Shown here in pieces: positions 34,804-37,260 of a DNA stretch of 64,000 nt. A program made the position numbers and the translations under genes. The number at the start of each line of letters is the position of its first letter. Position 1 is the stretch's first letter. Under the pieces are notes generated by a model, which saw only the letters and a program-made list of their open reading frames with translations, made no database searches and was not told where the DNA came from. Source of the stretch: Sphingomonas naphthae (GTDB taxonomy: Bacteria; Pseudomonadota; Alphaproteobacteria; Sphingomonadales; Sphingomonadaceae); assembly GCF_028607085.1 (NCBI RefSeq), contig NZ_CP117411.1, positions 3,362,501-3,426,500 of the forward strand, in the 5' to 3' direction.

Positions 34804-36030
34804 TTGCACAAGCACGATAGCGCGCTGGGGGTAGCGACCACCCCCGTCAAGATCGATACCGCTCTTGAGATTGCCCGTGGCCGACCCGTTCAGCCGGTCA
34901 CGCTCGTTCGCCCGCACGCGGCCCGCGCCGCCGCCCGATTCTTCGTCGAGAAGTTTCCGGGCCGGTCGCTCTATGCCGTGAAGGCGAATCCCTCGCCCGA
35001 TCTGATCCGCATCCTGTGGGATAGCGGCATCACCCATTATGACGTGGCCTCGATCGCCGAGGTCCGTCTGGTGGCGGGGCTCCTGCCCGAGGCGACCCTG
35101 TGCTTCATGCACCCGGTGAAGGCCGAGGAGGCCATCGCCGAGGCCTATTTCCAGCATAACGTCCGCACCTTCTCGCTCGATTCGATCGAGGAGCTGGAAA
35201 AGATCGTCCGCGCCACCAAGGGCGCCGAGGATCTCACCTTGTGCGTGCGGCTGCGCGTGTCGTCGGATCATTCCAAGCTCAGCCTGGCCTCCAAGTTCGG
35301 CGTCGAGGCATCCGAATCGAAGGAGCTGCTGTTCCGTGCCCGCCAGGCGGCGGACGCGCTCGGCATCTGCTTCCACGTCGGCAGCCAGGCCATGAGCCCG
35401 CAGGCCTATGTGCAGGCGATGGGCCGCGTTCGTCAGGCGATCGTCGAGGCGGCCGTCACCGTCGACGTGATCGACGTCGGCGGGGGCTTCCCGTCGATCT
35501 ATCCGGGCATGGTGCCACCGCCGCTGGAGGCGTTCTTCGACGCGATCCACGATGCGTTCGAGAGCCTGCCGGTCAGCTATTCGGCCGAGCTGTGGGCCGA
35601 GCCGGGCCGTGCGTTGTGCGCCGAATATGCCTCGCTGCTGGTCCGCGTCGAGCGGCGCCGGGGCGACGAACTGTACATCAACGACGGCGCCTATGGCGCG
35701 CTGTTCGATGCGGCGCACGTCGACTGGCGTTTCCCGGTCGAGCTGGTGCGCGACGGCGGTTCCTCGGCCAAGACGCTGCCGTTCAGCTTCTACGGCCCGA
35801 CGTGCGACGACATGGATCGCATGGCCGGCCCGTTCCACCTGCCGGCGGATACGCAGGCGGGCGATTTCATCGAGATCGGTATGCTCGGCGCTTATGGTTG
35901 CGCGATGCGTACCGGCTTCAACGGCTTCACCGCCGGCGAAGTGGTCGAGATGAGCGACCAGCCGATGGCCTCGGCCTATGGCGAGGTGCCGGTGGAACGC
36001 GTCCGCCCGTCGAACGTCGTCACGCTGTAA
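34804..36030 (+). CDS. Ornithine decarboxylase-family enzyme (fold III PLP)
   Basis: A 408-residue alanine-racemase-fold decarboxylase. K60 in SLYAVKANP is the PLP lysine; HVGSQ (191-195), GGGFP (226-230), EPGR (266-269) and C334 in GPTCDDMD match ornithine/lysine decarboxylases, where the aspartate pair next to the cysteine binds the amine. The start is a TTG at 34804, with GGAGG nine bases upstream and no ATG or GTG of the right kind nearby; further upstream the frame is not conserved. The gene for the deoxyhypusine-synthase-like protein follows. The product is probably putrescine; lysine may be a second substrate. Confidence 0.92.
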   Translation: MHKHDSALGVATTPVKIDTALEIARGRPVQPVTLVRPHAARAAARFFVEKFPGRSLYAVKANPSPDLIRILWDSGITHYDVASIAEVRLVAGLLPEATLCFMHPVKAEEAIAEAYFQHNVRTFSLDSIEELEKIVRATKGAEDLTLCVRLRVSSDHSKLSLASKFGVEASESKELLFRARQAADALGICFHVGSQAMSPQAYVQAMGRVRQAIVEAAVTVDVIDVGGGFPSIYPGMVPPPLEAFFDAIHDAFESLPVSYSAELWAEPGRALCAEYASLLVRVERRRGDELYINDGAYGALFDAAHVDWRFPVELVRDGGSSAKTLPFSFYGPTCDDMDRMAGPFHLPADTQAGDFIEIGMLGAYGCAMRTGFNGFTAGEVVEMSDQPMASAYGEVPVERVRPSNVVTL

Positions 36031-36055
36031 TCTTCGGCCGACACAAGCCACTCTG

Positions 36056-36100
36056 ACACCGTTCATCCCGGGTAGCCCGCTACCTTGGGATGGACGGTGT
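36056..36100 (+). other. Hairpin between the polyamine genes
   Basis: Fourteen pairs (36056-36069 with 36087-36100, one G-U) enclose a smaller GGTAG/CTACC stem. It begins 25 nt after the decarboxylase stop and about 107 nt before the next start. No T-run follows, so it may stabilise, process or attenuate the shared message. Confidence 0.7.
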
Positions 36101-36207
36101 GAGGGCCATTCATCCGATTTCGGCGCGGCCACGACCGTCTCGCCGACCTTCAGGGTTTCCGCGTCCCCGACCGAACGACGCCGGTTCATTGCAACGGGAG
36201 TTCTCCC

Positions 36208-37260
36208 ATGACCGAAGCCACCATCAACGACACCCGCAAGGCGGAGCTGCTCTCCACGCAAGTCGAGCATGTCGACATCACCAGCTTCGACGCGCGGCCG
36301 ATCATCGACGCCATGGGCAAGATGAGCTTCACCAGCCGCGATCTCGCGCGCGCGACCCGCATCTACAACGACATGCTGGCCGACAAGGATTGCACCATCT
36401 TCCTCGTCATCGCGGGCTCCACCTCGGCCGGCGGCTGCATGGATGCCTATGCCGAGCTGGTGAAGAACGGCATGGTCGACGCGATCGTCGCCACCGGCGC
36501 CTCGATCGTCGACATGGATTTCTTCGAGGGCCTCGGCCACAAGCATTATCAGGCCAACGAGGTGCCGGACGACGATACGCTGCGCTCGCTGCTGATCGAC
36601 CGCATCTACGACACCTATATCGACGAGGAGGATCTCCAGAACGTCGATCACACGATCTTCGAGATCGCCGAGACGCTGGAGCCCAAGGCCTATTCGAGCC
36701 GCGCCTTCATCCGCGAGATGGGCAAATATCTGGTCGAGCATGGCAAGAAGGAAAACAGCCTCGTCAAGCTCGCCTACGAGCATGACGTGCCGATCTTCTG
36801 CCCGGCCTTCACCGATTCTTCGGCGGGCTTCGGCCTGGTGAAGCATCAGGTGGATGCGATGAAGGCGGGCAAGCCCTACCTCACGATCGATTCGATCGCG
36901 GACTTCCGCGAGCTGACCGACATCAAGATCAAGGGCGGCACCTCGGGCCTGCTGATGATCGGCGGCGGCGTGCCGAAGAACTTCATTCAGGACACCGTCG
37001 TCTGCGCCGAGATCCTCGGCTACGATGATGTCGAGGTGCACAAATATGCGGTGCAGATCACCGTCGCCGACGTGCGCGACGGCGCCTGCTCCTCCTCCAC
37101 GCTTCAGGAAGCGGCGAGCTGGGGTAAGGTGAACACCGGCATCGAGCAGATGGTGTTCGCCGAAGCCGGATCGGTCATCCCGCTGCTGGCGTCCGACGCC
37201 TACCACCGCGGCCACTGGAAGGGCCGCGCCAAGCGCGCCTGGGCCAAGCTGTTCGCGTGA
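36208..37260 (+). CDS. Deoxyhypusine-synthase-like protein, probable homospermidine synthase
   Basis: A 350-residue Rossmann-fold protein of the deoxyhypusine synthase family. The catalytic lysine is K307 in EAASWGKVNTG, matching the SWGK of eukaryotic DHS. Other family blocks: FLVIAGSTSAGGCMDAYAELV, IVATGASIVDMDFFEGLG (93-110), PIFCPAFTDSSAGFG and SGLLMIGGGVPKNF (246-259). In DHS the aminobutyl group from spermidine goes to eIF5A; bacteria lack eIF5A, and bacterial relatives instead transfer aminobutyl to putrescine to make homospermidine. The neighbouring ornithine decarboxylase would supply putrescine. A good GGGAG precedes the ATG. The exact amine acceptor is inferred. Confidence 0.88.
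   Translation: MTEATINDTRKAELLSTQVEHVDITSFDARPIIDAMGKMSFTSRDLARATRIYNDMLADKDCTIFLVIAGSTSAGGCMDAYAELVKNGMVDAIVATGASIVDMDFFEGLGHKHYQANEVPDDDTLRSLLIDRIYDTYIDEEDLQNVDHTIFEIAETLEPKAYSSRAFIREMGKYLVEHGKKENSLVKLAYEHDVPIFCPAFTDSSAGFGLVKHQVDAMKAGKPYLTIDSIADFRELTDIKIKGGTSGLLMIGGGVPKNFIQDTVVCAEILGYDDVEVHKYAVQITVADVRDGACSSSTLQEAASWGKVNTGIEQMVFAEAGSVIPLLASDAYHRGHWKGRAKRAWAKLFA

What the first reader, a model, noticed from the sequence alone, without database searches (positions are those of the whole stretch)
34804..37260. Ornithine decarboxylase next to a deoxyhypusine-synthase-like gene: probable sym-homospermidine pathway
The two genes lie in the same direction with one intervening hairpin. The DHS-like protein keeps the catalytic lysine (K307 in SWGKV) and NAD-binding blocks of eukaryotic DHS, although bacteria have no eIF5A to modify. 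Ornithine decarboxylase would supply putrescine, and an aminobutyl transfer from putrescine to putrescine would give sym-homospermidine, the polyamine that marks Sphingomonas in the narrow sense. The evolution of homospermidine synthases from DHS is known from plants and bacteria; this exact assignment is inferred.
Basis: partly seen in the sequence, partly recalled or inferred. Interest (0 to 1): 0.68.

Follow-up and report, generated by a model that had tools for sequence, protein, structure and literature searches.

The report
Sphingomonad homospermidine gene pair
This gene pair most likely makes the unusual polyamine homospermidine, probably starting from arginine rather than ornithine, and in related bacteria the second gene is swapped at the same spot for two spermidine-type genes, which could explain a classic trait used to classify this bacterial family.

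Summary
The pair is real and adjacent in 27 of 29 relatives that carry the DHS-like gene. Homospermidine synthesis remains the best reading, but two details probably fail. (1) The "ODC" is more likely an arginine decarboxylase: the genome encodes agmatine deiminase and N-carbamoylputrescine amidase, its only other PF02784 protein is LysA, and it groups with Pelagibacter-like homologues of a type published as arginine-specific. (2) The DHS-like protein is not the putrescine-using SpeY type (27.8% identity to Nostoc's) but the agmatine-coupling caldomycin synthase type: above the NCBIfam cut-off, 60.2% identical to a Thermus orthologue. Putrescine use is not excluded. New here: among 35 genomes of the own family, 18 have the DHS-like gene and show no carboxyspermidine-gene homologues in the DNA held around the decarboxylase. 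The 17 without it all have a carboxyspermidine decarboxylase homologue there, 16 also the dehydrogenase (one contig ends). The decarboxylase tree needs 5 label changes. This swap is a candidate genetic basis for the homospermidine/spermidine divide among sphingomonads; products are inferred, not measured.

The parts
34804..36030 (+). Alanine-racemase-fold PLP decarboxylase (408 aa from the TTG), annotated elsewhere as 'type III PLP-dependent enzyme'; most likely arginine decarboxylase
   Evidence: PF02784/PF00278; no NCBIfam model reached its cut-off; groups with Pelagibacter-like homologues, apart from the typical alphaproteobacterial ODC-like set
36051..36105 (+). Inverted repeat (about 17 pairs) in the 177-nt spacer; no T-run; not conserved
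36208..37260 (+). Deoxyhypusine-synthase-like triamine synthase of the caldomycin synthase (CdmS) subfamily, catalytic K307
   Evidence: PF01916; NF002699 556.4 bits, cut-off 500; 60.2% identity to Thermus arciformis L180, 27.8% to Nostoc SpeY L275
33656..34627 (-). Flanking PALP-fold enzyme (ammonia-lyase-like), divergent; anchors synteny with both DHS-type and carboxyspermidine-type loci, not itself part of the pathway

Best explanation
The pair is the homospermidine-forming module of an arginine-fed polyamine pathway. Step 1 (inferred, about 0.75): the decarboxylase turns arginine into agmatine. Step 2 (triamine role inferred, about 0.9): the DHS-like enzyme, by the NAD-dependent imine chemistry of DHS with K307, joins two four-carbon amine units. 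Its subfamily makes agmatine the likelier substrate (about 0.5), giving caldomycin (1,9-bis(guanidino)-5-azanonane); putrescine is the main alternative (about 0.4). Step 3 (inferred): the guanidino groups are removed, before or after coupling, by the genome's agmatine deiminase and N-carbamoylputrescine amidase, which stand in for the ureohydrolase of Thermus and for the agmatinase that follows the gene in other alphaproteobacteria. Product: sym-homospermidine. In sister genera the same decarboxylase at the same locus is accompanied by carboxyspermidine dehydrogenase/decarboxylase homologues instead, so the branch to homospermidine or spermidine is set by which cassette is present.
For: DHS-like over the NF002699 cut-off, far under that of NF001980 (168.7, cut-off 450); Thermus arciformis orthologue also over it. 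Identity 60.2% against 27.8%; the residues modelled as guanidine contacts in CdmS (S67, E136, D143, E293) are S71, E140, D147, E301 here, against A, Y, D, E in the one SpeY (model in PMC10981699). Agmatine deiminase plus amidase pair in the own genome. Only other PF02784 protein is LysA; no PF01276 match in the own genome and 0 of 59 over its cut-off. Of 20 related loci, 10 have an agmatinase right after the DHS-like gene, all 10 over the TIGR01230 cut-off, and 3 have deiminase plus amidase nearby. Own family: decarboxylase in 35 of 35 genomes, deiminase in 34 of 35, DHS-like in 18 of 35. Cassette swap 18 to 17, 5 label changes, 2 forced by well-supported branches, no shuffle of 500 as low.
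Against: No enzyme was assayed. The residue that aligns with the ODC specificity aspartate (D332 in mammalian numbering, recalled) is kept, and the best PDB matches are lysine/ornithine decarboxylases (160 bits) ahead of the viral arginine decarboxylase (106 bits). The Thermus contacts come from a docked model, not mutants; position 286 is C here and L in Thermus, so specificity may have shifted. Half of the DHS-positive genomes of the own family (9 of 18) hold no PF00491 ureohydrolase at all, so the Thermus finishing step is missing and deiminase/amidase would have to act on caldomycin. The amidase is over the N-carbamoylputrescine amidase cut-off, which fits a putrescine route. The deiminase is below its equivalog cut-off (217.4, cut-off 381.8). 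DHS-positive and DHS-negative genomes do not differ in having deiminase or ureohydrolase (29 of 29 against 28 of 30).
Confidence: 0.6

Rival explanations
1. Arginine decarboxylase, deiminase and amidase first make putrescine, and the DHS-like enzyme then joins two putrescines (the scheme proposed for Zymomonas; the alphaproteobacterial proteins are called SpeY by the Michael group).
For: Proposed for ZMO1020/ZMO1019/ZMO1369/ZMO1370 (PMC8594446). Amidase over the N-carbamoylputrescine amidase cut-off. DHS-negative sister genomes keep decarboxylase and deiminase and carry carboxyspermidine genes, which makes putrescine a natural shared branch point. Putrescine is a minor polyamine of some Sphingomonas (PMC12453569, PMC10619552; passages).
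Against: The protein is 60.2% identical to the Thermus type, whose tested member did not use putrescine, and only 27.8% to the SpeY type. No direct putrescine assay of an alphaproteobacterial member turned up in what I read.
Confidence: 0.4
2. One reading: ornithine decarboxylase supplies putrescine directly, DHS-like enzyme couples it.
For: Alanine-racemase-fold decarboxylase with the aligned ODC specificity aspartate; nearest solved structures are lysine/ornithine decarboxylases.
Against: Agmatine-consuming enzymes accompany the gene: deiminase in 34 of 35 genomes of the family, agmatinase or deiminase/amidase beside it in 13 of 20 related loci. It sits in a well-supported group with Pelagibacter-like homologues; Pelagibacter and Fonsibacter enzymes of such clusters showed no activity on ornithine. 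Eight class-level genomes carry a window-type copy and a second, lower-scoring ODC-like copy, which suggests different jobs.
Confidence: 0.2
3. A true deoxyhypusine synthase that modifies a protein.
For: DHS fold and catalytic lysine; RefSeq calls the S. parapaucimobilis gene 'deoxyhypusine synthase'.
Against: All deoxyhypusine synthase models score far below their cut-offs while NF002699 is over its own; constant pairing with a decarboxylase and replacement by carboxyspermidine genes. I did not search the genome for an eIF5A homologue.
Confidence: 0.03

Closest known systems
Caldomycin synthase CdmS of Thermus thermophilus (TTHA1570), NCBIfam NF002699
   Same: Same subfamily by NCBIfam cut-off; 60.2% identity to the T. 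arciformis orthologue; modelled agmatine contacts and catalytic lysine kept.
   Different: Paired with an alanine-racemase-fold decarboxylase and, in this genome, deiminase plus amidase in place of the ureohydrolase TtSpeBap; C instead of L at CdmS position 286.
Zymomonas mobilis ZMO1020-ZMO1019 operon with ZMO1369-ZMO1370
   Same: Same gene set by description: group IV decarboxylase plus DHS-like gene, deiminase plus amidase elsewhere (PMC8594446, passages).
   Different: That paper proposes putrescine coupling and did not test it; no comparison of sequences could be made here because the loci were not fetched.
Pelagibacter/Fonsibacter ODC-ADC + DHS/SpeY clusters
   Same: Same two-gene core, plus agmatinase or deiminase/amidase (PMC9992855, section 6 part 1 and passages); Pelagibacter-like loci L054, L055 here show decarboxylase-DHS-agmatinase.
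   Different: Only the decarboxylase was assayed in what I read; sphingomonads have the agmatine-consuming genes elsewhere.
Anabaena-type SpeY (NCBIfam NF001980)
   Same: DHS fold, catalytic lysine, homospermidine as end product (literature, recalled and cited).
   Different: 27.8% identity, different NCBIfam model, A and Y where CdmS has S67 and E136 (one SpeY sequence).

Membership tests
Caldomycin synthase subfamily (NF002699) | Score over the curated cut-off of the equivalog model | tested here: met
   556.4 bits, cut-off 500
Caldomycin synthase subfamily (NF002699) | Catalytic lysine and the residues modelled to bind guanidino groups (S67, E136, D143, E293; K299) | tested here: met
   S71, E140, D147, E301, K307; numbering carried over from T. 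arciformis with one constant shift of 5
Caldomycin synthase subfamily (NF002699) | Leu286 in place of human DHS Asp316 | tested here: not met
   C294 here; over 134 rows (some genes twice) L in 76, C in 58. Not known to be required
Caldomycin synthase subfamily (NF002699) | Couples two agmatines, no activity on putrescine | not testable with these tools
   needs an enzyme assay
SpeY (NF001980) | Score over the curated cut-off | tested here: not met
   168.7 bits, cut-off 450; the Nostoc gene L275 scores 591.8
Deoxyhypusine synthase proper | Score over the cut-off of a DHS model (TIGR00321, NF002006, NF002630, NF002294, NF003052) | tested here: not met
   all five below cut-off
Deoxyhypusine synthase proper | eIF5A substrate in the genome | not tested
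Arginine decarboxylase of the Pelagibacter ODC/ADC type | Groups with such decarboxylases apart from typical ODC-like ones | tested here: met
   19-row group 98/99 with L054, L055; nine typical rows apart at 100/100.
Arginine decarboxylase of the Pelagibacter ODC/ADC type | Agmatine-consuming enzymes in the genome | tested here: met
   deiminase and amidase, L072
Arginine decarboxylase of the Pelagibacter ODC/ADC type | Activity on arginine and not on ornithine | not testable with these tools
   needs an enzyme assay; the aligned ODC specificity aspartate is kept in window and in L054, L055 alike, so it does not decide

The most novel reading that the evidence does not exclude
Sphingomonads make their marker polyamine without passing through free putrescine: two agmatines are joined to caldomycin by this enzyme, and agmatine deiminase plus N-carbamoylputrescine amidase, acting on the coupled product, strip both guanidino groups; the whole branch is exchanged at one locus for a carboxyspermidine branch, several times in one family, switching the cell from homospermidine to spermidine.
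Probability: 0.38. Interest if true: 0.72.

Novelty: new member of a known kind. Interest (0 to 1): 0.58.

Why it matters
Homospermidine against spermidine has been used for decades to tell Sphingomonas in the narrow sense from Novosphingobium and its kin, with no gene named for it in the papers I could search. A one-locus cassette swap turns a taxonomic phenotype into a predictable gene call, explains exceptions such as the spermidine-rich Sphingomonas spermidinifaciens (title only) as testable cases, and offers natural replacements for asking whether the two triamines are interchangeable in bacteria. If the agmatine branch is right, caldomycin chemistry known from one thermophile would be common in ordinary soil and water bacteria.

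Tried and rejected
Rfam search of the whole window for a polyamine riboregulator (speF element expected from recall): no match at gathering score. The spacer hairpin as a conserved regulator: rejected, not shared by 14 relatives' spacers; nearest second copy in the window has 3 mismatches, as chance allows. Phage or viral copies of the DHS-like gene: none in the phage records nor in viral contigs at close similarity (single-protein query). D332-type specificity residue as a decider between ODC and ADC: rejected, kept in all types of interest. Loss of the two aspartates of human DHS as a CdmS mark: rejected as a decider, because the SpeY row has also lost both (M and L). Gene-neighbour Pfam scan in distant phyla to find arginine decarboxylases beside CdmS-type genes: mostly unrelated or unmatched neighbours; one Bacteroidota contig, L212, has a SpeA-like decarboxylase upstream, under the models' cut-offs. 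Carboxyspermidine assignment: the sphingomonad proteins are closest to NF043000 and TIGR01047 but under both cut-offs (437.0, 388.2, 433.1 of 800; 387.8, 381.5, 376.9 of 409.05), so the names rest on best match and synteny. Whether CASDC would have shown up in the own-genome PF02784 search: it would not, it matches only PF00278, so carboxyspermidine genes elsewhere in DHS-positive genomes are not excluded. Not tested for want of searches: the unrelated homospermidine synthase (HSS), eIF5A, pyruvoyl-type ADC/ODC in the own genome, the amidase elsewhere in DHS-negative genomes. Structure prediction was not run because a monomer model would not separate the substrates.

Full report
WHAT IS THERE. 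The window holds a PLP decarboxylase (34804-36030, +) and a deoxyhypusine-synthase-like gene (36208-37260, +), 177 nt apart. Upstream and divergent lies a PALP-fold enzyme, downstream an SH3-domain protein on the other strand. The spacer hairpin is real but is not called a terminator and not shared by 14 relatives. The same order, PALP gene, decarboxylase, DHS-like gene, is annotated in Sphingomonas parapaucimobilis.

THE DHS-LIKE PROTEIN IS OF THE CALDOMYCIN SYNTHASE TYPE. [quoted passage not shown] The name goes back to CdmS of Thermus thermophilus, which joins two agmatines, left putrescine and spermidine levels unchanged, and needs a ureohydrolase to yield homospermidine (PMC10981699, parts 1 and 2 of 4 read). 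A Thermus arciformis orthologue (L180) came up in a scan of named genomes, passes the same cut-off (541.1) and is 60.2% identical to the window protein over 339 columns; a Nostoc SpeY (L275; NF001980 591.8 bits) is 27.8% identical. The same Nostoc assembly holds both types (L275 and L282). Of the CdmS residues modelled as guanidino contacts, S67, E136, D143 and E293 are all the same here, and F204 too; SpeY has A, Y, D, E and M. Against this: those contacts come from docking, only one SpeY row was compared, SpeY has also lost the two human aspartates, and position 286 is C here but L in Thermus. In the tree of 52 rows the alphaproteobacterial proteins (24 rows, 100/98) lie inside a C-type set (33 rows, 100/100) within the group that holds Thermus; SpeY and a haloarchaeal DHS are apart on very long branches. 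So subfamily membership is shown; the substrate is not.

THE DECARBOXYLASE IS PROBABLY FED BY ARGININE. In the own genome PF02784 finds two proteins, this one and LysA (441.0 bits, cut-off 297.9). PF01276 (aspartate-aminotransferase-fold decarboxylases) finds nothing there and nothing over its cut-off in 59 relatives. The genome does encode agmatine deiminase and, next to it, N-carbamoylputrescine amidase (428.8 bits, cut-off 410.25; the deiminase is under its equivalog cut-off). In the own family (35 genomes) the decarboxylase is in 35, deiminase in 34, the DHS-like gene in 18; two deiminase genes carry in-frame stops as held (G007, G010). In 20 related loci picked across the class and order, 18 hold the decarboxylase, 10 have an agmatinase right behind the DHS-like gene, 3 have deiminase and amidase in the region; 10 of 10 agmatinases pass TIGR01230. 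In the tree of 54 decarboxylases the window lies in a 19-row group (98/99) with L054 and L055 from small genomes (1.2 Mb; L055 29% GC); nine typical ODC-like rows are apart at 100/100. Pelagibacter and Fonsibacter 'ODCs' from clusters with a DHS homologue act on arginine and showed no activity on ornithine or lysine (PMC9992855, section 6 part 1). A 2023 paper notes that pyruvoyl arginine decarboxylase genes mostly sit with 'speY', ornithine ones with other triamine genes (PMC10407285, passages). Against: the aligned ODC specificity aspartate is kept, and the nearest solved structures are lysine/ornithine decarboxylases.

THE SWAP. In the 17 genomes of the own family that lack the DHS-like gene I looked at the DNA around the same decarboxylase. 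All 17 have a carboxyspermidine decarboxylase homologue beside or near it, and 16 also a carboxyspermidine dehydrogenase homologue; in the seventeenth, G018, the contig ends. None of the 18 DHS-positive genomes shows either homologue in the DNA held (3.2 to 18 kb, 64 kb for the window). The PALP gene flanks both kinds in many of them, so it is the same locus. Five layouts occur: PALP | decarboxylase-DHS; PALP | CASDH-CASDC-decarboxylase; G005, PALP | decarboxylase-CASDH-CASDC; G070 (an eighteenth DHS-negative family member), PALP | decarboxylase with the carboxyspermidine genes convergent; G014, PALP | DHS, other genes, decarboxylase. On the decarboxylase tree (37 family rows and 5 outside rows) the label needs 5 changes; 2 are forced by well-supported branches, shuffled labels need 12.7 on average and none of 500 is as low. 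The bootstrap had not fully settled. G014 carries a decarboxylase of the carboxyspermidine-type clade but a DHS-like protein 86 to 88% identical to those of typical carriers; G021 and G070 show the reverse. The carboxyspermidine proteins match NF043000 and TIGR01047 best but under both cut-offs. Two decarboxylase-bearing genomes outside the family, G055 and G057, have neither cassette nearby.

PHENOTYPE. Sphingomonas species report homospermidine as the major polyamine with minor putrescine or spermidine (PMC12453569, PMC10619552; passages); Novosphingobium reports spermidine (PMC13318209; passages).

HOW IT MOST LIKELY WORKS. Arginine to agmatine by the first gene; then either two agmatines are coupled to caldomycin and stripped of their guanidino groups, or agmatine is turned to putrescine first and two putrescines are coupled. 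Both end in homospermidine and use the same genes. Subfamily and contact residues favour the first (about 0.5); the amidase's name, the absence of any PF00491 ureohydrolase in 9 of 18 DHS-positive family members and the shared use of decarboxylase and deiminase by spermidine-type relatives favour the second (about 0.4). One linkage detail may bear on it: deiminase and amidase genes are adjacent in 14 of 17 DHS-positive genomes and in 0 of 13 DHS-negative ones among the 30 deiminase loci held; in two of the 13 the amidase lies about 1.3 kb away, in ten DHS-negative genomes with 8 kb flanks none was seen. These rows are related by descent, so the low Fisher value is not a fair probability.

KNOWN AND NEW. 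The enzymes are of known kinds, and the Zymomonas paper proposed the same gene set in 2021 with putrescine coupling (PMC8594446, passages). What I did not find in print (open-licence library only) is the assignment of the sphingomonad protein to the caldomycin type and the locus-level swap with carboxyspermidine genes. NCBI's model name already implies the first.

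Noticed in passing
L074 12010-13053, L075 10010-11053 (Trichormus and Nostoc plasmids): Caldomycin-synthase-type gene on cyanobacterial plasmids right after rocD and beside iron-uptake or TonB siderophore receptor genes, in lineages that have a separate SpeY (shown for one Nostoc assembly); a siderophore role is possible.
   Followed up: partly
L056 6183-9629 (unnamed 1.8-Mb alphaproteobacterium, G068): DHS-like gene directly followed by carboxynorspermidine-synthase-like and carboxynorspermidine-decarboxylase-like genes, so the two cassettes can also stand together; no decarboxylase of either type was found in that genome at E 1e-25.
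   Followed up: partly
L031 1381-2304 (own genome): The only PF00491 protein of the genome reads LGGDDS where agmatinases usually have GGDHS (usual motif recalled), and is under the agmatinase cut-off (111.8, cut-off 174.3).
   Followed up: no
L053 8893-9945 (G168): A lone DHS-like gene beside flagellar-type genes, with no polyamine gene found near it.
   Followed up: no
L076-L104 and L072: Agmatine deiminase and N-carbamoylputrescine amidase are adjacent in 14 of 17 DHS-positive and 0 of 13 DHS-negative genomes held.
   Followed up: partly
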